From assembly GCF_018729455.1 (NCBI RefSeq), contig NZ_JAHHZF010000008.1, positions 1-64,000 of the forward strand: a DNA stretch of 64,000 nucleotides, given 5' to 3'. This document shows positions 53,845-64,000 of the stretch, piece after piece. Source of the stretch: Prosthecodimorpha staleyi. GTDB taxonomy: Bacteria; Pseudomonadota; Alphaproteobacteria; Rhizobiales; Ancalomicrobiaceae. The notes under the pieces are model-generated. The model saw only the letters and a program-made list of their open reading frames with translations. It searched no databases and was not told the origin of the DNA. Position numbers and translations under genes: made by a program. Each line of letters starts with the position of its first letter. Within the stretch, counting starts at the first letter, position 1.

Positions 53845-54798
53845 ATGCTGGCGACGGACGCGATCTTGGACAGGACGATGCCGGACCCGGCCGGGACGGC
53901 GTCGAGCCGCGCCGCAGCGTCCGATGCCGCCGCCGCCGCACGCGCTGACGCGGCCTGCGGCGCAAATGCCGCGGGTCCGGCCGTGCTGGAACGCGCGCGC
54001 GGCCGGGCCGAGATCGCCTTCAAGCTGTCGGCCGGCGCGACCCGGGTCGACCGCTTGTTCCAGGAGGGCCAGGCCAAGATCCGCCTGCCGCGCGGCGAAC
54101 CGGGCGATCCGCCGACCGCGGTCGTCATCAACACCGCCGGCGGCGTCACCGGCGGCGACCGGCTCGACATCGCGGCCTCCTGGGGACCCGGCACCACCGC
54201 GGCCGTGACCGGACAGGCGGCGGAGCGCATCTACCGGTCCTCGGGCGGCGCGGGCACGATTCGCAACCGGCTGTCGGTCGGCGCCGGCGCCACGGCCGAA
54301 TGGCTTCCGCAGGAAACCATCCTGTTCGACCGCAGCCGCCTGGCGCGCCGCCTGGAGGTCGATCTCGCCGCCGATGCGCGCTGCCTGATCGTCGAGAGCG
54401 TGTTCTTCGGGCGCGGCGCCATGGGCGAGCGGGTCACCGATGGCGCCATCACGGACCACTGGCGCGTCCGCCGCGACGGCCGGCTGGTTCTGGCGGAGAG
54501 CTTCCGGGCCGGTGGCGACACGACGGGACTGTTCGCCGGGCGCGCCACGGGTGCCGGCGCGATCGCCTTCGCCACACTGCTCTATGCCGCCCCGGATGCC
54601 GACCGGTATCTCGACAGGCTGCGCGGGCTCGTCGATGATGACGCTCGGGAACCAGCGGTGGAGGCCGGCACGAGCGCCTTCGACGGCTTCCTGGTGGCGC
54701 GTTTCCTGTCGCCCTCGCCGCAGGCGCTCCGGCGCGACCTCGTCCGCATCCTCGAAGCCTTCCGCGGCCGGCCGATGCCGCGGCCCTGGTCCTGCTGA
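53845..54798 (+). CDS. ureD: Urease accessory protein UreD
   Basis: This 317-residue protein is the scaffold for nickel delivery into apo-urease. The family motifs are [17 protein letters not shown], the AERIYRS segment, [14 protein letters not shown] and [15 protein letters not shown]. The C-terminus [21 protein letters not shown] is typical. An Ala-rich N-terminal extension of about 45 residues is present; ATG 53878 is an alternative start. It precedes ureA by 22 bases in the canonical ureDABC order. Confidence 0.95.
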
Positions 54799-54820: not shown

Positions 54821-55123
<303 letters not shown>

Positions 55124-55133
55124 GGAGACCGGC

Positions 55134-55439
55134 ATGATCCCCGGAGAAGTCATCCCCGCCGCCGGCGAGATCGAGCTCAATGCCGGCCTGCCGACCGTCA
55201 CGCTCGAGGTCGCCAATACCGGCGACCGCCCGGTCCAGGTCGGCTCGCACTATCATTTCTTCGAGACCAACCCGGCGCTCGTCTTCGACCGCGACAAGGC
55301 CCGCGGCATGCGGCTCGATATCCCCGCCGGCACCGCCGTGCGCTTCGAGCCCGGCCAGACCCGCAGCGTCACGCTGGTCCCCTATGGCGGCAAGCGCGAG
55401 GTCTATGGATTCCGCCAGGCGGTGATGGGGACGTTGTGA
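55134..55439 (+). CDS. ureB: Urease beta subunit
   Basis: This 101-residue protein starts [18 protein letters not shown] and contains [14 protein letters not shown] and the C-terminal end [14 protein letters not shown], typical of the urease beta subunit. Just after the stop, a diverged copy of the last eleven codons follows (see separate entry). Normally ureC follows directly; here it begins 1,342 bases later because an oppositely oriented RNA ligase gene intervenes. Confidence 0.97.
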
Positions 55440-55489: not shown

Positions 55490-56623
55490 TCAGGCCTCCA
55501 GATCCGGCAGGGACAGGCCTTGGAGAGACCAGTGCATTCCGAACAGATCGCGCACGGCACTGACCCTCGGCTCGGACTGGCTCGCAGCGGCGAGCAGGTC
55601 CATGAGCAGGGCGCGGCTGTCCTTGCCGTCGAGCACCGAGAAGGCGAGGCCGCGCAGCCGCGGATCGAATGTCGCGATGGCCCGGGCGGCGAAATCCTTG
55701 CGCGGCAGGTCCCGATGCTCCGCGACGAAGCGGTCGATTGCGGCCGCAAGGTTGGCCATGCCGCGGCCGACCTGGTCGCGATAGTCGAGAACGCGGTCGG
55801 CCACGTCCTCCGGCAGCAGGGGCACGATGTCGTCGACGCTTCCGGCGCAGACCCAGCCCAGCACATTCTTCTCGAACTCAACGAGGCTGAGCGCCTTGTG
55901 GCGGAGCACATAGGCCTCGGTCTTCAGTTTCAGCCGATGGCCGTCGTCGAAGGCCAGCACATAGCCCTCGATGCCGGTGGCGGCGCGCACGCGCGCGACG
56001 AATTCGGCGGCATCGTCGACCGTGCCGTGGTCCTCGACCAGGGCCACGCCGAAGCGCCCGGCGAGCCGCTCGATCTCGGCGCGCGGCAGATAGAGGCCCG
56101 AGACCATCTCGCGGGCCGCCAGAAGGGTCCATTGCGGCCGGTCATAGGCGAGAACGATGCGGTTCTCGGGCGCGGTGAACTCGAAGATCGGCGTGATGCC
56201 GGCCTCGACCAGATGCCGGCTGATGTCGAATTCCGGCGCCGCCGCGTGTCGTTGCGCGCGGGCGGACTGCTCGGTCTCTCCCATGCGCGTCATGAAGCGC
56301 AAGGCGCCGTCGATGAGAACCGGATGGATCATCGAGCCGTCGAGCTTCGCATGGATGCGGTGTGGCGCCGACCAGTCGACCTCCTCCAGGCGCTGGCGTT
56401 CGCCGAGGTTGAAGAACTTGTGGAACGGACGGCCGATCAGGCGCCCGTCGCGGTCGAATTTCAGGCCGCGGCATTCGAGCGAGATCGCGTCCGTGAACGT
56501 GTCCGAGACGGTATGCACATAGTCGACCACTGTGTGGTCGCCGCGGCGCGAGACGACGAAGCCCCGCTCGTAGGACACGTGCGGCGCCACGTCGGACAGC
56601 GTTTCGATGCGAGGGAAGTCCAC
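55490..56623 (-). CDS. T4 Rnl1-family RNA ligase
   Basis: This 377-residue ATP-dependent RNA ligase seals 3'-OH and 5'-phosphate RNA ends through a lysyl-AMP intermediate. Motif I is AKLDGSM with the nucleotidyl Lys93, preceded by ECRGLKFDRDGRLIGRPFHK. Motif IIIa is FEFTAPENRIVLAY (148-161), motif IV is EGYVLAFDDG (219-228) and motif V is LKLKTEAYV (231-239). A helical C-terminal region of about 130 residues has the size of the T4 tRNA-specificity domain. The start is set at GTG 56623 behind a GAAGGG ribosome site; GTG 56689 would add 22 residues. It lies on the opposite strand between ureB and ureC. Confidence 0.92.
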   Translation of the reverse strand: MDFPRIETLSDVAPHVSYERGFVVSRRGDHTVVDYVHTVSDTFTDAISLECRGLKFDRDGRLIGRPFHKFFNLGERQRLEEVDWSAPHRIHAKLDGSMIHPVLIDGALRFMTRMGETEQSARAQRHAAAPEFDISRHLVEAGITPIFEFTAPENRIVLAYDRPQWTLLAAREMVSGLYLPRAEIERLAGRFGVALVEDHGTVDDAAEFVARVRAATGIEGYVLAFDDGHRLKLKTEAYVLRHKALSLVEFEKNVLGWVCAGSVDDIVPLLPEDVADRVLDYRDQVGRGMANLAAAIDRFVAEHRDLPRKDFAARAIATFDPRLRGLAFSVLDGKDSRALLMDLLAAASQSEPRVSAVRDLFGMHWSLQGLSLPDLEA

Positions 56624-56781
56624 CGCGATGCCCTTCGAACCACAATCTATGGATGTACGATAGCCCGCGTTGGGTTGGTTCGCCAGCACGGGCGGGCCGC
56701 ACGGCGTTGAAATTCGACTGCAGGCACCGATCCCCCTTCGCGGCGCGACCCGGACGCGCCGTCGGTTAGACGAGGAACTCC

Positions 56782-58494
56782 ATGTCCTTCAAGATCTCCC
56801 GTTCCGCCTATGCCGACATGTTCGGCCCGACCGTGGGCGACAAGGTGCGGCTCGCCGATACCGACCTGATCATCGAGGTCGAGCGCGACCTGACCACCTA
56901 TGGCGAGGAGGTCAAGTTCGGCGGCGGCAAGGTCATCCGCGACGGCATGGGCCAGGCGCAGACCACGCGCGCGGACGGCGCGGTCGACACCGTGATCACC
57001 AACGTGCTGATCGTCGACCACTGGGGCATCGTGAAGGCCGATGTCGGCCTCAAGGACGGCAAGATCCATGCGATCGGCAAGGCCGGCAATCCGGACGTGC
57101 AGCCGGGCGTCGACATCATCGTCGGCCCGGGTACGGAGGCGATCGCCGGCGAGGGCAAGATCCTGACCGCGGGCGCGCTCGACACCCACATCCATTTCAT
57201 CTGCCCGCAGCAGATCGACGAGGCGCTGATGTCCGGCGTCACCACCATGCTGGGCGGCGGCACGGGACCGGCGACCGGCACGGCGGCGACCACCTGCACG
57301 CCCGGCCCCTGGCATCTGAAGCGGATGCTGCAGGCCGCCGAGGCCTTCCCGATGAACCTCGCCTTCGCCGGCAAGGGCAATGCCTCGCTGCCGGCCGCGC
57401 TCGCCGAGCAGGTCCTGGCCGGCGCCTGCGCTCTGAAGCTGCACGAGGACTGGGGCACCACGCCGGCGGCGATCGACAACTGTCTCTCGGTCGCCGACGA
57501 ATACGACGTGCAGGTGATGATCCACACCGACACGCTGAACGAATCCGGCTTCGTCGAGGATACCGTCGCGGCCTTCAAGGGCCGCACCATCCACGCCTAC
57601 CACACCGAGGGCGCCGGCGGCGGCCATGCGCCGGACATCATCAAGGTCGCTGGGCTGCCCAACGTCATCCCGTCCTCGACCAACCCGACCCGGCCCTATA
57701 CGCGCAACACCCTCGACGAGCATCTCGACATGCTCATGGTCTGCCACCATCTCGATCCGTCGATCCCCGAGGACGTGGCCTTCGCGGAGAGCCGCATCCG
57801 GCGCGAGACGATCGCGGCGGAAGACATCCTGCACGACATGGGCGCCTTCTCGATCATCTCGTCGGACAGCCAGGCGATGGGCCGCGTCGGCGAGGTCCTG
57901 ATCCGCACCTTCCAGACCGCCCACAAGATGCGCGTGCAGCGCGGGCGCCTCGGCGAGGAGACCGGCGACAACGACAATTTCCGCGTCAAGCGCTACATGG
58001 CCAAGGTGACCATCAACCCGGCCATCGCGCATGGCCTGTCGAACTATGTCGGCTCGATCGAGGTCGGCAAGTTCGCCGATCTGGTGCTGTGGTCGCCGGC
58101 CTTCTTCGGAGTCAAGCCGGACCTGATCCTCAAGCTCGGCACCATCGCGGCCGCCCCGATGGGCGACCCGAACGCCTCGATCCCGACCCCGCAGCCGGTC
58201 CACTACCGGCCGATGTTCGGCGCCTTCGGCAAGGCGCTGTCGGCCTCGGCCATCACCTTCGTCTCCAAGGCCGCCTACGAGGCCGGCATCGCCGAGAAGC
58301 TCGGCCTCGACAAGGTCGTGCTGCCGGTCGAGAACACCCGCGGCGGCATCGGCAAGGCGGCGATGGTTCACAACCACGCCACGCCGGACATCGAGGTCGA
58401 TTCCGAGACCTACGAGGTCCGCGCCGACGGCGAATTGCTGACCTGCGAACCGGCCACCGTCCTGCCGATGGCGCAGCGGTATTTCCTGTTCTGA
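56782..58494 (+). CDS. ureC: Urease alpha (catalytic) subunit
   Basis: This 570-residue subunit is complete and has all nickel-site residues: His136 and His138 in DTHIHF, carbamylated Lys219 in ALKLHEDWG, His248 in IHTDTLNE, His274 in [15 protein letters not shown] and Asp362 in SSDSQAMG. The flap Cys321 and His322-323 are in MVCHHLDP. The enzyme hydrolyses urea to ammonia and carbamate. Its promoter cannot be the ordinary ureDAB read-through unless transcripts cross the opposing RNA ligase gene. ATG 56782 has a GAGGAA ribosome site. Confidence 0.98.
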
Positions 58495-59415
58495 GGCGGG
58501 CGGTCGCGATCCGGCATCGACGCCCGGCAAGCATCGGGTCGTGACCTCGCCATCCGGGACGGGGTTCGGGGTATCGAGACGCGGCTCGTACGCGACCGCG
58601 GGTCCCGCGGCCCGGGATGCGCGACCGACCGAAGGGCGTCCGCACCGGTGGCGACATCGGAACGGTCAAGACGCGGCGCTGCCCGGTTTGCCTCGGGCCT
58701 CTTTGGCCTTGGCAGGATCGGAGGGTGACGTTGATGCCGGGTCGGTACGAGCGGCGACGACAAAGACGAGCAGTCAATCTCGACATGCGACCTGACGTCG
58801 CATAATGCAACCAAAAGATATATTCGATCTTGCGGATATTGGGATCTGGTAGTATTATTCCCGATATCGCGCAAGAAAATGCGGTGAGCTCATGCGGCGC
58901 ATCGAAGTTCATATCTTCCAATCGCGCAAAATCAGCTGAATTTGGCTTATCGATTCTACCATGGCGAGATAGGACTTATTTTGTCTGAATGAGATGGTCA
59001 GGCAGTAAGATCTATTGCGACATTGGTTTATTTCGATAGTTCAATGCAGGCATGATGAATGAAGATCGGCGGGGTTTGTCGGCGGTTTTGAGCCCGATAA
59101 CAGCATCGTCGCAAGAAATAAGCCTCCGATCTGAAGGAAGACCGTACGGGCGCTCTGCCGACGGAGATGCGGTCTGCCGACCGCTGTGCCGTGCGATCGG
59201 CGGCGCCTGATCGCGGCGAGAGCCTGGCTGATCGAGGATTTGAACGGACGTTGCTTCGGCGGCGGCGGCTCGCGCGCGCCCCGGATCGATGCCGCCTTGC
59301 TGCATTTCGCTTTCGGGAAGGCGGAAGCGCAGCCCTGAACGACATGCCTGCGGTGGCCGACGGGCCGGCATGGGTCCGGCCACCGCCCAGCAACACCATG
59401 CCCGCGGAGGACACC
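58495..59415. other. Long non-coding gap with an AT-rich block
   Basis: These 921 bases between ureC and the haloperoxidase gene contain no supported gene. The first 300 and last 250 bases are GC-rich like the neighbours. The block from about 58790 to 59130 is clearly AT-rich (runs such as AAAAGATATATTCG and TTTATTTCGATAG) and has stop codons in all frames. It probably holds the haloperoxidase promoter or is a scar of transfer. Confidence 0.55.
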
Positions 59416-61155
59416 ATGTGCCCATCGAACGGTGATACCGACAGGGAATGGGAAGTGGCGCCGGGCGTGTTCGCGGTCGGCATCGGCAGCTTCCACAAAT
59501 CCTTGAGACACAATGACTTCGGCGAGGTCGAGAGACCCGAATTCGAGAAACTCGTGAAGGCCACCCGTGGCCTCGGCAGCGAGTTCAAGCGGGTCCCGAA
59601 GGGTCCGGGACGGAATGGGGCGGACGCTGCGGCGCTGACCAATCCGCAGGGCGGTCTGGCGGCGGACCGCCTGACGCATCATCCGGCCGGCTACGCGATG
59701 CTGCCGGCGCCGAAGGTCGATTCCATCGGCACAGCGGCGGAAATGACCGAGCTCTACTGGATGGCGCTGCTGCGCGACTGCGATTTCGCGCATTGGGACG
59801 AGGGGCAACTGGTCTCGGATGCCGCGTCGGAACTTGACGGCTGCTTCGCGCGGGCCGTTGCCGATACGCAGGACGTCGGTCATCTGCGGCCCGGAATCGA
59901 CCTGCCTGGCAGTGCGTTGGCGCGGGCACCGGTGACCCCCCAAAATCTGTTTCGCCTCGGTCTGCCCGGCGAAGAAGTCGGGCCCCTGGTTAGCCAGTTC
60001 TTCCTGCGCGACGTCGCCTTCGGCACCCAGACGATCGACCAGATGCAACGGCCGTACAAATCCGGTGCGAACTATCTCACCGAATTTGCCGACTGGAAGG
60101 CGGCGCAGGACGGCGGGCAGGACAAGTTCGGCAAGGCCTATCCCGAAGCCAACGAGTACGATGAGTCATTCTACGAACCTGGCCGCCTGAAGCGGTATAT
60201 CAGCACGCCGCGCGACCTTGCGCGTTTCGTCAACAAGGATGCGCTGCATCAGGCCTATTTCAACGCCGCACTGATCCTGCTGTCGGGAGCGGCCAAGTGG
60301 ACGCCGGGCAATCCCTACAGCGACTGCGGTCCTCTCAAGGATCGCGAGGCCGGCTTCGGCGTTCTCGGCGGCCCGCACATCCTGGCGCTGGTCTCCGAAG
60401 TCGCCACCCGGGCGCTGAAGGTGGTCTGGAACCAGAAATGGCAGGTCCATCTGCGTCTGCGCCCCGAAGCCTATGGCGGCCTGGTCCATGTGCAGACCAT
60501 CGGCGCGAACGGGGCCGGCACCCGCGCCTACGGGCTGCCTGAGTGGGTCGCGGCAACCAAGGCCGCGATGATGGTCAAGCAAGACTGCAAGTCCCTGCTT
60601 CTGCCGATGGCCTATTCGCCCGGAAGCCCGACCCATCCGGCCTATGGCGCCGGCCATGCCACCGTCGCCGGGGCCTGCGTCACTGTCCTCAAGGCCTATT
60701 TCCAGACCTTCGAGTGCGACGACCCGATGTCGCCCCTGAAGTTCACTTCCCTCAAGGAGCGCTCCCAGCCCTTCGGTGAGAAGAAGGATGAGATCTCGTG
60801 CTTCGTGCCAGGGATGCTGGCAAACGGTACCTGGGGCCTGCTCCCACTGGATGAAGCCGTTACGGCGCAACTGACCATCGAGGGCGAACTCAACAAGCTG
60901 GCGCAGAATGTCGCCATGGGACGCTCCATGGGCGGCGTCCACTGGCGCTCCGACAATGCGCGCAGCCTGATTCTCGGCGAAGCGATCGCCGCGGAGATGC
61001 TCGCCGACATCACGCGGGATGCCAACGAATACCCGGAATTCACGTTCCGCACTTTTGCCCGCAAGGATGACGGCGAGCCCAAGCATGTCGTGATCAAGGG
61101 CGGCCGCATCTTCGTCGACGGCAACTTGACAAACACGCACATGAGCGCGTTGTAA
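59416..61155 (+). CDS. Vanadium-dependent haloperoxidase (algal-type)
   Basis: This 579-residue enzyme oxidises halides with hydrogen peroxide using vanadate. The vanadate site is recognised in KWQVHLRLRP (Lys341, Arg347/349), SPTHPAYGAGHATVAG (His414) and GVHWRSDNARSLILGE (His509, Arg511). The algal-type core usually reads SGH; here Ala precedes Gly-His. No signal peptide is seen. The start ATG 59416 has a GGAGG ribosome site 6 bases upstream, better than the upstream in-frame ATG 59398. The gene lies in urease orientation between ureC and ureE but has no known link to urease; an AT-rich block precedes it. Confidence 0.88.
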   Translation: MCPSNGDTDREWEVAPGVFAVGIGSFHKSLRHNDFGEVERPEFEKLVKATRGLGSEFKRVPKGPGRNGADAAALTNPQGGLAADRLTHHPAGYAMLPAPKVDSIGTAAEMTELYWMALLRDCDFAHWDEGQLVSDAASELDGCFARAVADTQDVGHLRPGIDLPGSALARAPVTPQNLFRLGLPGEEVGPLVSQFFLRDVAFGTQTIDQMQRPYKSGANYLTEFADWKAAQDGGQDKFGKAYPEANEYDESFYEPGRLKRYISTPRDLARFVNKDALHQAYFNAALILLSGAAKWTPGNPYSDCGPLKDREAGFGVLGGPHILALVSEVATRALKVVWNQKWQVHLRLRPEAYGGLVHVQTIGANGAGTRAYGLPEWVAATKAAMMVKQDCKSLLLPMAYSPGSPTHPAYGAGHATVAGACVTVLKAYFQTFECDDPMSPLKFTSLKERSQPFGEKKDEISCFVPGMLANGTWGLLPLDEAVTAQLTIEGELNKLAQNVAMGRSMGGVHWRSDNARSLILGEAIAAEMLADITRDANEYPEFTFRTFARKDDGEPKHVVIKGGRIFVDGNLTNTHMSAL

Positions 61156-61285
61156 GGCCTTTGATCGCCAGCGCGCCGGCATCCGGCGCGCTGCTGTCCC
61201 GTCCACGGCACCGCGATCCCGGCCGACTGCCCCTTCGCGATTGGGTGGGTCCTCGATCTCGGCGTCCTGCCGGACCTGCCCTGCT

Positions 61286-61326
61286 GCAGCGTCGGCCCCG
61301 GATCTTGGATCCGGGGCCGACGCTGC
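61286..61326. repeat. Perfect 19-bp inverted repeat
   Basis: GCAGCGTCGGCCCCGGATC (61286-61304) and its exact complement (61308-61326) are separated by TTG. It lies between the convergent haloperoxidase and rtcB genes. There is no T-tract on either side, so it is either a bidirectional terminator-like stem or, more likely, a dispersed palindromic repeat. Confidence 0.75.
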
Positions 61327-61347
61327 ATGGGCGTGCGCGACGGACCG

Positions 61348-62820
61348 TCACCCCTTCACGGTGAGGAGGGGCGCGAGGCGGGCCACCCGGGCGGCGATGC
61401 CGGCGTCCACGACGGTATCGACCACCGGGCCGATATCCTTGTAGACGCGCGGGGCCTCCTCGGCGAGGGCGCGGACGGCTTCGGCGGCCACGTCGCGGCG
61501 GCTGCGCTCGAGGTCGATCTTGCCGACCACCCGGATCGGGCGCGGGTCCTCCGGCCCGGCGCGCCCGGCATTGCGCGACAGCACCCGTCCGGCGCCATGC
61601 GGCGCGCTTTCCAGGCTTTCCGCTGCACCGAGCCCGCGCAGGAGCCAGCTGGCCGTACCCATCGAGCCCGGCACGATGACCGGATGGCCGTCGGGGAAGA
61701 CCGGATCGGCGGCGTCGTGCAGGGCCGGGCAGGCGCCCTTGCGGTGAAGCGCGCGGTTGCCCTGGCCCCAGACCAAGTTATGCGGCAGGTCATGGACCAG
61801 ATGCCAGCCGATCGCACGGCCGACCAGCCGCGACAGGGTCTCGGCCACCATCAGCGACATGGCCAGCCGGTTGACGATGGCGAAATTGGCCGCCGCCGCC
61901 ATGTCGGCCAGATAGTCGCCGCCGGGGCCGCCGCCCTCCGCGGTCAGCGCCAGCGGCAGGACGCCGTTGGCGGGCCGCTTCTCGCCGGCCGGCCAGAGCG
62001 CCAGGGCCCGGTCGAGATGGGCGAGCGCGACCGCCTTGCCGAGGCCGAGCGAACCGGAATGGACCATGACGGCGGCCCGCCCCCGCCGGACGCCCCAGTC
62101 CCAGGCCGCGCGCGGGTCGGCAATCGTCTCGACCCGCTGAATCTCGACGAAATGGTTGCCGCCGCCGACCGTCCCTAAGAAGCCGTCGCGGGTGACGCCA
62201 TCGCGTCCGCCGGGCCGCAGCCATTCGGACAGAACCGTCCCGACCCGCGCCCCGCCGATCCGCCCGCCGCCATGGCAGCGGGCCGCCGCGCGGGCGAGGC
62301 CGGTCGGACCGAGCCGATCGAACAGGCCGGTGTCGCGGGCGGTCGCGGCGAGGCCGGCGAGGCCGTCGACGAGCACGGCCTCGCGGGTCGCCGCATCGAG
62401 GCGGATATCGCGTCCACCCTCGAAGAAGGCGTGGCGCAGGGCGGTCTCCAGGGGGCGGCCGAGCGCGGCGATCTCGTCGGCCTCGATGTCGAGAACGGCG
62501 AGGCTCATGCCGCAGCCGATATCGCTGCCGGCCGCGCGCGGGATGACGAAGCCCTGTGTCTCCGCCACGGTGCCGACCGGCATGGCGGCCCCGCGGTGGA
62601 AATCCGGCGTGAGCACGATCCGGCCGAGGCCGGATCCGGGTGCGAGAATGCCCGCTTCGACCAGACGCGCCGCCGTGGCGGCGGTCTCGGCGAAGCCGGC
62701 AATGTCGTCGAGCGAGGCGCGGTCGATGTCGACGCGCGCATCGGCGAAGAGGGTGGCGACGACGCCGTGGCCGCAATCGACGAGCGACCGCACGGCATCG
62801 AGTCTTTCGATGACCGGCAT
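61348..62820 (-). CDS. rtcB: RNA-splicing ligase RtcB family protein
   Basis: This 490-residue enzyme joins RNA 2',3'-cyclic or 3'-phosphate to 5'-OH ends in a GTP- and Mn-dependent reaction. Conserved motifs are GSDIGCG (Asp100, Cys103), GGGNHF (His223), MVHSGSLGLG (His254; the usual Arg after Ser is Leu here), HDLPHN (His347), the guanylylated His359 in HRKGA, and PGSMGTASW. The start ATG 62820 has an AAGGA ribosome site. It opposes the urease genes and lies just upstream of, and divergent from, ureE. No RtcA or RtcR gene is seen. Confidence 0.93.
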   Translation of the reverse strand: MPVIERLDAVRSLVDCGHGVVATLFADARVDIDRASLDDIAGFAETAATAARLVEAGILAPGSGLGRIVLTPDFHRGAAMPVGTVAETQGFVIPRAAGSDIGCGMSLAVLDIEADEIAALGRPLETALRHAFFEGGRDIRLDAATREAVLVDGLAGLAATARDTGLFDRLGPTGLARAAARCHGGGRIGGARVGTVLSEWLRPGGRDGVTRDGFLGTVGGGNHFVEIQRVETIADPRAAWDWGVRRGRAAVMVHSGSLGLGKAVALAHLDRALALWPAGEKRPANGVLPLALTAEGGGPGGDYLADMAAAANFAIVNRLAMSLMVAETLSRLVGRAIGWHLVHDLPHNLVWGQGNRALHRKGACPALHDAADPVFPDGHPVIVPGSMGTASWLLRGLGAAESLESAPHGAGRVLSRNAGRAGPEDPRPIRVVGKIDLERSRRDVAAEAVRALAEEAPRVYKDIGPVVDTVVDAGIAARVARLAPLLTVKG

Positions 62821-63003: not shown

Positions 63004-64000
63004 ATGATCCGCGCCAATGCCACCGTCGCCGCCGGGACCTATCCGGCCTCGTCCGTCGCCGACAGCGTCGAACTCGACTACGAGGACCGCAGCCGGCGCC
63101 GCCTGACCATGACCGGCCGCAGCGGCACGCTGTTCCATGTCGATCTCGCCGAGACGCCGTCCCTGGTCGAGGGCGACGGCTTCCTGCTCGAGGATGGCCG
63201 GGTGGTGGCGGTCGTCGCCAAGCCGGAGCGGCTGGCCGAGGTCGCCGCCGAGGATGGTCACCTGCTCGCCCGCATCGCCTGGCATCTCGGCAATCGGCAC
63301 ACGCCCGCCGAGATCCGGCCCGGCGCGATCCGCATCCGCGACGACTATGTGCTGGTCGAGATGCTGAAGAAGCTCGGCGCCGGGGCGGTCCGCTTCGTCA
63401 CCGAGGCCTTCGCGCCGGAGGGCGGCGCCTATGGCCACGGCCATACCCTGGCGCACGACCATGCGCCGCGCCCGGCCGAGGCTTCGGCCACCGCTGCCGC
63501 ATCGGCCGCCGCCGCTGCGGCCGGGCCGGCGATCGCTGCCGTCGACGATGCCGAGATGGCCGCCGCCCTGGAGCGCCGCCGCCAGCGCCAGGCCGCCCGC
63601 GCCGCCCGCGAGGCCGAGCATGTCCACGGCCCGGATTGCGGCCACGACCACCATCACCACGACCATGGTCACAGCCATGGTGATCATGATCATGCCCACG
63701 AGCATCACGGGCATGATCACGATCACGCCCATGATCATGGGCACCATCACGAGCATGGCCCGGGCTGCGGCTGCGGCCACGATCACGCCCATGAGCATGG
63801 ACATTCCCATGCCCATGCGGATGCGCATCACGACCACGATCATGGACCGGCCCACAATCATGACCATGGGCACGATCACCACGCCCACGATCACGAGCAT
63901 GGGCACGACCATGAGCACGCCCATGCTCACACCCATGAGCATGGCCCCGGCTGCGCCTGCGGGCATGCCCACGATCATGACCACGCTCACGACCATGCCC
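63004..64000 (+). CDS. ureE: Urease accessory protein UreE, partial, with very long His-rich tail
   Basis: The UreE nickel chaperone domain covers residues 1-155: an N-terminal beta domain ([14 protein letters not shown], then [12 protein letters not shown]) and a metal-binding domain ([27 protein letters not shown]). An Ala/Arg linker (about 155-212) leads into a His/Asp/Gly/Glu tail of more than 115 residues (from about 213) that is still open at the window end. The tail contains two copies of a HEHGPGC-x-CGH motif with CxC pairs. It should store or chelate nickel. ureF and ureG presumably follow outside the window. Confidence 0.93.

What the first reader, a model, noticed from the sequence alone, without database searches (positions are those of the whole stretch)
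55490..62820. Two RNA ligases of opposite end chemistry nested in a urease operon
A T4 Rnl1-type ligase (3'-OH/5'-phosphate chemistry, Lys93 in AKLDGSM) sits between ureB and ureC, and an RtcB (2',3'-cyclic phosphate/5'-OH chemistry, His359 in HRKGA) between ureC and ureE. Both are antisense to urease. Together they could repair either kind of broken RNA end, for example tRNAs cut by stress or anti-phage anticodon nucleases. T4 Rnl1 does this in phage. Their co-occurrence inside a metabolic operon looks like repeated insertion at one site. A joint RNA-repair function is inference; no kinase/phosphatase or nuclease partner is visible.
Basis: partly seen in the sequence, partly recalled or inferred. 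Interest (0 to 1): 0.72.

Follow-up and report, generated by a model that had tools for sequence, protein, structure and literature searches.

The report
RNA ligase lodged in urease operons
A bacterial gene for a phage-like RNA-mending enzyme has settled several times in the same small gap inside urease gene clusters, a gap where related bacteria sometimes keep RNA-cutting toxin genes; the second RNA ligase nearby looks like a separate, local arrival.

Summary
Both are antisense to urease, keep their active sites and are under purifying selection. The RtcB nucleophile is the HGAGR histidine, not HRKGA.

A joint system is not supported: the two are neighbours only in Prosthecomicrobium, and 11 of 34 other ligase genomes hold any RtcB.

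"Repeated insertion at one site" is right and stronger than stated. Nine species carry this ligase clade antisense in the ureB-ureC gap. The ligase tree nests Prosthecomicrobium inside Methylobacterium, while its ureC is native. A second ligase type (about 30% identical) lies co-directionally before ureC in two more genomes. Of 24 ligase-free operons read, 19 hold cargo in that gap, 7 of them PIN-toxin modules (one decayed, in the window's genus).

Elsewhere the ligase sits between ruvA and ruvB. In 22 of 42 ligase rows a terminator-like hairpin ends 15-26 nt before the start (0 of 258 control genes).

Best reading (inferred): a mobile, kinase-free repair gene sealing 5'-P/3'-OH RNA breaks.

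The parts
55490..56623 (-). Rnl1-type ATP-dependent RNA ligase, 377 aa from the likely GTG start (longest ORF to 56689); Lys93 nucleophile in AKLDGSM
   Evidence: PF09511 2.4e-22; T4 Rnl1 best in sequence and fold (Z 27.8 over 337 residues); nucleotidyltransferase residues invariant in 24 aligned ligases; dN/dS 0.17
56624..56781 (.). Divergent ligase-ureC intergenic stretch (158 bp); no consensus promoter and no terminator-like hairpin found here
55134..55439 (+). ureB, left border of the gap
   Evidence: PF00699 5.6e-47
56782..58494 (+). ureC, right border of the gap; groups with ligase-free relatives of the same family (native)
   Evidence: TIGR01792; ureC tree
54821..55123 (+). ureA (start inferred from relatives; not tested against Pfam)
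   Evidence: ORF; matches among relatives
53845..54798 (+). ureD
   Evidence: PF01774 6.9e-51
59167..61155 (+). 662-aa PAP2-like (haloperoxidase-like, recalled) protein, cargo in the ureC-ureE gap
   Evidence: PF01569 E 0.0087, below its cut-off; 87% identical in P. hirschii
61348..62820 (-). RtcB, 490 aa from the internal Met (ORF to 62871); metal ligands and HGAGR nucleophile present
   Evidence: PF01139 4.9e-82; alignment to PH1602; positions and dN/dS 0.14
63004..64000 (+). ureE with a His-rich tail, cut by the window end (name by position and relatives, start inferred, not tested against Pfam)
   Evidence: matches in relatives

Best explanation
The ligase is a catalytically complete cellular member of the T4 Rnl1 family that travels as a single gene without the polynucleotide kinase found beside several phage relatives. 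It has entered the ureB-ureC gap, a recurrent cargo site in Hyphomicrobiales urease operons, most simply three times in urease lineages that are not each other's closest relatives (ligase and ureC trees conflict: shown; number and direction of moves: inferred). In Prosthecomicrobium it most simply came from a Methylobacterium-like donor and took the place that some relatives fill with PIN-domain (VapBC-type) toxin modules. Function (inferred): it seals RNA breaks with 5'-phosphate and 3'-hydroxyl ends directly, without end-healing. Such ends are left by metal-dependent nucleases acting on tRNA, so it works as a one-gene repair or antidote. RtcB and the PAP2-like gene are separate cargo in the neighbouring ureC-ureE gap, not partners.
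For: Fold and residues of Rnl1, both domains. Same gap, same antisense orientation in 9 species; all 6 subfamily-A copies found in 111 Methylobacterium genomes are there. Ligase tree: urease-gap clade 100/99, Prosthecomicrobium nested in Methylobacterium 97/91. ureC tree: window ureC with G002/G007 98/94, Methylocystis with G033 96/89, three changes forced. Between the window gap and six gaps of other genera only the ligase ORF is alike. The steps next to the gap are native: ureB end 82-88% to G002/G007 against 68-72% to the Methylobacterium/Methylocystis operons; ureC start 91-93% against 70-79%. Gap in 24 ligase-free operons: 5 under 60 bp, 19 with cargo, 7 PIN modules incl. a decayed one in G002 of the same genus. 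Phage relatives: 3 of 4 read have an AAA_33 kinase directly downstream; a strong match to those kinases is in 1 of 36 ligase genomes. The own genome holds 8 PIN matches. The metal-dependent tRNase AriB leaves 5'-P/3'-OH ends (PMC12409363, passages).
Against: No substrate, expression or phenotype data. PIN modules are only 7 of 19 cargo cases and were never seen together with the ligase; LysE, LprI-like and other cargo share the gap, so this may be no more than a shared hotspot. That VapC leaves 5'-P/3'-OH ends is recalled; no passage read states it, and one (PMC7790460) takes VapC induction of the E. coli rtc operon as consistent with a cyclic-phosphate signal, which would not suit this ligase. 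Weak matches to the phage kinases (E 1e-10 to 1e-3) exist in 11 further genomes, the window's included, and could supply a kinase in trans. No ligase-free Methylobacterium operon was put in the ureC tree, so gains and losses inside that genus are unknown; three changes may also be one gain and two losses. One copy (L068/G985) is frameshifted.
Confidence: 0.5

Rival explanations
1. Joint repair system: Rnl1 and RtcB are co-selected to seal both kinds of broken RNA ends.
For: Complementary chemistry; neighbours in two Prosthecomicrobium species; 9 of 12 PF09511 genomes in the order sample have RtcB, p 1.7e-5 uncorrected; some jumbo phages hold Rnl1, Rnl2 and RtcB together (PMC7824862, passages).
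Against: Adjacency of this pair only in Prosthecomicrobium; 23 of 34 ligase genomes lack any RtcB, 9 of 14 in a second set; the RtcBs found are of several types by score and length; four relatives of the window's RtcB stand in stretches without urease or ligase.
Confidence: 0.08
2. Operon-linked function: the ligase or its antisense transcript acts on urease expression, which is why it keeps returning to ureB-ureC.
For: Several urease lineages, always antisense for subfamily A; a second ligase type before ureC.
Against: The two subfamily B copies are co-directional; the gap holds many unrelated genes; subfamily A outside urease sits between ruvA and ruvB and elsewhere; the antisense sRNA match RF02514 appears in ligase-free ureC too.
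Confidence: 0.1
3. Plain cargo: a phage-derived gene resting in a tolerant gap, moved by recombination between conserved ureB and ureC, with a role only during phage infection (counter-defence or superinfection exclusion).
For: Phage relatives at 33-36%; subfamily B copies in surroundings that look prophage-like by eye in Methylobacterium; patchy presence, 12 of 397 and 5 of 318 genomes.
Against: Purifying selection (dN/dS 0.17) and, outside urease, a conserved leader hairpin argue for regulated host use.
Confidence: 0.24
4. Single ancestral insertion in an old urease operon, lost in most lineages.
For: The urease-gap subfamily A ligases are one clade; the changes on the ureC tree could be losses.
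Against: ureC and ligase trees conflict; sister genomes G002 and G007 have no ligase and G002 has a PIN-module remnant instead.
Confidence: 0.14

Closest known systems
T4 RNA ligase 1 (Rnl1; PF09511, TIGR02308)
   Same: Both domains, catalytic residues, best match in sequence and fold.
   Different: About 24% identical, under the TIGR02308 equivalog cut-off (111 of 242 bits); cellular, no adjacent kinase, lodged in operon gaps.
Phage ligase-kinase gene pairs (Caulobacter phage Cr30, Roseobacter phage DSS3P8, Rhizobium phage RHph_I1_18)
   Same: Relatives of the window ligase, 33-36% identical.
   Different: Directly followed by an AAA_33 kinase; no match to these kinases beside the window ligase or the loci L036-L072.
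HARP-Rnl3 pairs (PMC12153264)
   Same: RNA ligase tied to a PIN-superfamily (VapC-group) nuclease; a toxin-antitoxin reading is proposed there (part 1 of 3 and passages).
   Different: Rnl3 not Rnl1; often co-located there, whereas here PIN modules and ligase were seen in the same gap of different genomes, never together.
RtcB/RtcA and Pnkp1-Rnl-Hen1 repair operons
   Same: RNA repair enzymes in bacteria (starts of abstracts).
   Different: Dedicated operons with partner enzymes or a regulator (abstract starts and recall); none seen here.
RtcB (PF01139)
   Same: Window RtcB meets the family model and keeps the active site.
   Different: Long divergent type, under the cut-offs of the NCBIfam RtcB models it matches.

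Membership tests
T4 Rnl1 family | Nucleotidyltransferase residues (R52, K93, E148, E219, K232, K234 in the window; assignment to motifs recalled) | tested here: met
   Invariant in the 24 aligned ligases, window included; nucleophile region aligned to T4 Rnl1
T4 Rnl1 family | Rnl1-specific helical C-terminal domain | tested here: met
   AlphaFold model pLDDT 94 aligns over 337 residues, model 5-367, to T4 Rnl1 0-374, Z 27.8; rmsd 14.5, probably because the two domains are turned differently
T4 Rnl1 family | TIGR02308 equivalog score (242 bits) | tested here: not met
   111 bits; hence a Pfam/fold family member, not a T4 RnlA equivalog
T4 Rnl1 family | ATP-dependent sealing of 5'-P/3'-OH RNA | not testable with these tools
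   biochemistry needed
RtcB family | PF01139 match, Cys/His metal ligands and guanylated His (assignment recalled) | tested here: met
   276.9 bits against a cut-off of 27; C120, H240, H271, H364, H425 of the ORF by alignment to PH1602 (positions, which printed the first His of HDLPHN, 360; the aligned one is 364)
Joint Rnl1-RtcB repair system | Conserved gene neighbourhood | tested here: not met
   2 of 37 named loci, one of them P. hirschii (one RtcB query, flanks of unequal length)
Joint Rnl1-RtcB repair system | Genome co-occurrence | tested here: inconclusive
   9 of 12 against 11 of 34 and 5 of 14; the sets overlap in a few genomes
Phage-type ligase-kinase pair | Kinase beside the ligase | tested here: not met
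   no match at E 0.01 to the four phage neighbour proteins in the window or L036-L072
Known anti-phage defence systems | PADLOC model match | tested here: not met
   0 matches for four proteins

The most novel reading that the evidence does not exclude
A one-gene RNA repair cassette, an Rnl1 ligase without kinase, competes with PIN-domain RNA-cutting toxin modules for the same operon gaps and moves between families as their counterpart: it reseals the 5'-P/3'-OH tRNA breaks that such toxins make. Outside urease its expression is held by a terminator-type hairpin set 15-26 nt before the start codon, a possible attenuator that opens on RNA damage.
Probability: 0.2. Interest if true: 0.75.

Novelty: new variant of a known kind. 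Interest (0 to 1): 0.55.

Why it matters
Bacterial RNA repair is known mostly as operons with healing enzymes (recalled). A lone ligase that keeps returning to one operon gap, where relatives hold RNA-cutting toxin modules among other cargo, offers a direct test of whether cells carry kinase-free repair against metal-dependent tRNases. It also shows that gaps between subunit genes of a metabolic operon can be exchange sites for conflict genes. The conserved leader hairpin gives a concrete handle on how such a ligase is switched on.

Tried and rejected
Joint RtcB-ligase operon: rejected on neighbourhoods. Kinase partner in the window genome: only a weak match, E 2.1e-6. Urease antisense sRNA (RF02514): it also hits ureC in all seven loci tested, five of them ligase-free, so it reflects ureC coding conservation. 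Transfer of urease together with the ligase into Prosthecomicrobium: rejected by the ureC tree and by the identities next to the gap (mid-ureB is as close to Methylobacterium, 85-87%, as to G002/G007, 83-88%; L038, 82%). Promoter in the ligase-ureC stretch: none found by consensus, which proves little. Defence-system membership: no PADLOC match. Literature: a search for RNA ligase with urease operon terms found 102 papers with 4 of 5 terms; the 20 listed have 0 occurrences of 'RNA ligase'. A search for Rnl1 with Alphaproteobacteria and genomic context found 0 papers. Earlier reports of extra ORFs in rhizobial urease operons are recalled only; the 12 listed of 40 papers have no orf135. The review on RNA damage in biological conflicts (recalled) is not held.

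Dropped rows: the ligase tree has 45 rows chosen by hand, leaving out truncated, frameshifted or near-identical copies (for example L048, L052, L057, L058, L066-L069, L071, L072); L045 has one internal stop, written X. The ureC tree has no ligase-free Methylobacterium. Of 28 other genomes with a ureC match, 24 were read; G009, G011, G012 and G032 (fragments or weak) were not. In the leader count L042 and L043 also show the hairpin but fail the rule because the script chose another start; L059 and L071 have it at other distances; L052 is a spurious weak hit. Several rows are near copies or the same contig, so 42 rows are not 42 independent genomes; there are 21 distinct hairpins (L042 and L052 left out). 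Gene calls were mechanical (length and codon-position GC), so neighbour names not tied to a Pfam call are by eye.
Full report
What is there. The window comes from a Prosthecomicrobium close to P. hirschii (ligase 91% identical in L036). An Rnl1-type RNA ligase lies antisense between ureB and ureC, and an RtcB lies antisense between ureC and ureE, with a 662-aa PAP2-like gene between ureC and rtcB. Both enzymes keep their active sites. The predicted ligase structure (pLDDT 94) matches T4 Rnl1 over both domains (Z 27.8, 337 residues, rmsd 14.5). dN/dS against P. hirschii is 0.17 for the ligase, 0.14 for RtcB and 0.05 for ureC, so both ligases are under selection.

No joint system. With the window's RtcB as query, RtcB was found in the held flank of 2 of 37 named ligase loci (L036-L072; one is labelled Anaerolineae, two lie on one contig, flanks are of unequal length): P. 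hirschii itself and L053, where a different RtcB type lies about 9.5 kb away. Of 34 other genomes with the ligase, 11 have any RtcB; of 14 more, 5 (one of them apparently already in the 34); of the 9 species with the urease-gap clade, 4. In the order sample the link looks stronger: 9 of 12 against 71 of 397, p 1.7e-5. But kinship and genome size are uncontrolled, two of the twelve (G050, G051) carry a longer protein that looks kinase-fused, and the RtcBs are of several types. Relatives of the window's RtcB in G037, G051, G154 and G415 lie in stretches without urease.

Recurrent site. The nearest ligases, in Methylobacterium oryzihabitans, Methylorubrum suomiense, Methylorubrum rhodinum, a Methylocystis MAG and Methylobacterium sp. 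R2-1 (frameshifted), all lie antisense between ureB and ureC. In 111 genomes of one Methylobacterium genus 9 hold a ligase; all 6 copies of this subfamily are in that gap (two in further species, G968 and G978), and the 4 copies of a second subfamily are in surroundings that look prophage-like by eye. With P. hirschii and the window this makes 9 species. The second subfamily, about 30% identical, is co-directional with urease in G278 (between ureB and ureC) and in G559 (directly before ureC; the contig ends before ureB).

Transfer without urease. In the ligase tree the urease-gap clade of subfamily A is supported at 100/99, and Prosthecomicrobium lies inside Methylobacterium (97/91; the tie to M. 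oryzihabitans itself is weak, 87/39). In the ureC tree the window groups with ligase-free G002 and G007 of its own family (98/94) and Methylocystis with G033 (96/89); three changes of the ligase label are forced, which could in principle be one gain and two losses. No ligase-free Methylobacterium was in that tree. Between the window gap and six gaps of other genera only the ligase ORF is alike, and the stretches next to the gap are native. So the gene most simply moved into the same gap of several native urease operons. The constant orientation suggests recombination through short conserved flanks (inference).

The gap is a cargo site. In 24 ligase-free operons read, the ureB-ureC gap is under 60 bp in 5 and 424-1349 bp with ORFs in 19. 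Six hold a PIN protein (Pfam for all six) behind an antitoxin-like gene (MazE-type by Pfam in G003 and G024, by eye in G005, G008, G014, G033). G002, of the window's own genus, holds a decayed version: an antitoxin-like start (PF04014) and a PIN C-terminal remnant 67% identical to that of G014, although the remnant alone has no Pfam match. Four hold LysE-like translocators (G010 and G028 tested) and several LprI-like proteins (G026 tested). Thus in the window's genus the ligase stands where a relative has the wreck of a PIN-toxin module.

Outside urease. In Mesorhizobium, Jiella and Aurantimonas (L047, L056, L067, L070) the ligase lies between ruvA and ruvB (Pfam for L047 and for ruvA of L056), and the three of them put in the tree form a clade (99/96). 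In 22 of 42 ligase rows an intrinsic-terminator-like hairpin ends 15-26 nt before the start codon, against 0 of 258 other genes of those loci (in a wider stretch 3 of 258 have any such hairpin, none in that position). The 21 distinct hairpins differ in sequence but stay paired with few mismatches. The hairpin is present also where the upstream gene call is divergent (L046, L048, L054, L059), so it belongs to the ligase. It was not found before the urease-gap ligases. That it is an attenuator is inference.

Function. Phage relatives read here are followed by an AAA_33 kinase in 3 of 4. No match to these lies in the window or L036-L072, and 1 of 36 ligase genomes holds a strong match, 11 more only weak ones. 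A ligase without kinase fits breaks that already carry 5'-P and 3'-OH ends, as metal-dependent nucleases leave. This is reported for AriB (PMC12409363, passages read). For VapC it is recalled: passages of PMC5408214 call VapC metal-dependent and a tRNA cutter without naming the ends, and a passage of PMC7790460 counts VapC among inducers of a system thought to sense cyclic-phosphate ends, which speaks against it. The window genome has 8 PIN matches. A related idea, an RNA ligase paired with a PIN-group nuclease, is in print for HARP and Rnl3 (PMC12153264, part 1 of 3 and passages). The step from gap-sharing to antidote is unproven: no operon read holds both ligase and PIN module, and other cargo shares the gap.

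Verdict. Observation confirmed; the joint system is not supported; the repeated insertion at one site is supported and extended. The enzyme is a known kind in a new setting. On re-checking, the VapC passage and the missing ligase-free Methylobacterium operons made me lower the best explanation from 0.55 to 0.5 and the novel case from 0.22 to 0.2, and raise the plain-cargo and ancestral-insertion rivals by 0.02 each.

Noticed in passing
L047, L056, L067, L070 around 9-12 kb: The ligase lies between ruvA and ruvB, genes that overlap by a few bases in G050 (L102).
   Followed up: partly
ligase loci among L041-L061, L066, L067, L070, L094, L096, just upstream of the ligase: Terminator-like hairpin with T-run ending 15-26 nt before the ligase start codon; 22 of 42 rows against 0 of 258 control genes.
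   Followed up: partly
L147 8958-10160: A subfamily B ligase directly after groEL (Pfam; groES by eye) on the same strand in G852.
   Followed up: no
L102 3.7-10.8 kb: A TROVE-like gene, an RtcA-like gene and a 751-aa protein that looks like a kinase-ligase fusion in a row in G050; names by eye, only the PF09511 part tested.
   Followed up: no
window 59167-61155: 662-aa PAP2-like protein inserted between ureC and rtcB; PAP2 match under the cut-off.
   Followed up: no
G000:C11:88758-89519 (L113): A second, distant RtcB paralogue elsewhere in the window's genome.
   Followed up: no
L042 and L043: A contig labelled Anaerolineae carries an almost identical ligase to an alphaproteobacterial MAG, probably mis-binned.
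   Followed up: no
window 56934-57223 (-): Rfam 5' ureB sRNA match antisense to ureC; it appears in ligase-free ureC genes too, so it reflects coding conservation.
   Followed up: yes
L095 (G181): AT-rich stretch with an Rnl1 ligase and a phage-type kinase, likely phage or foreign DNA in that assembly.
   Followed up: no
window 63500-64000: ureE carries a long His-rich tail that continues past the window.
   Followed up: no
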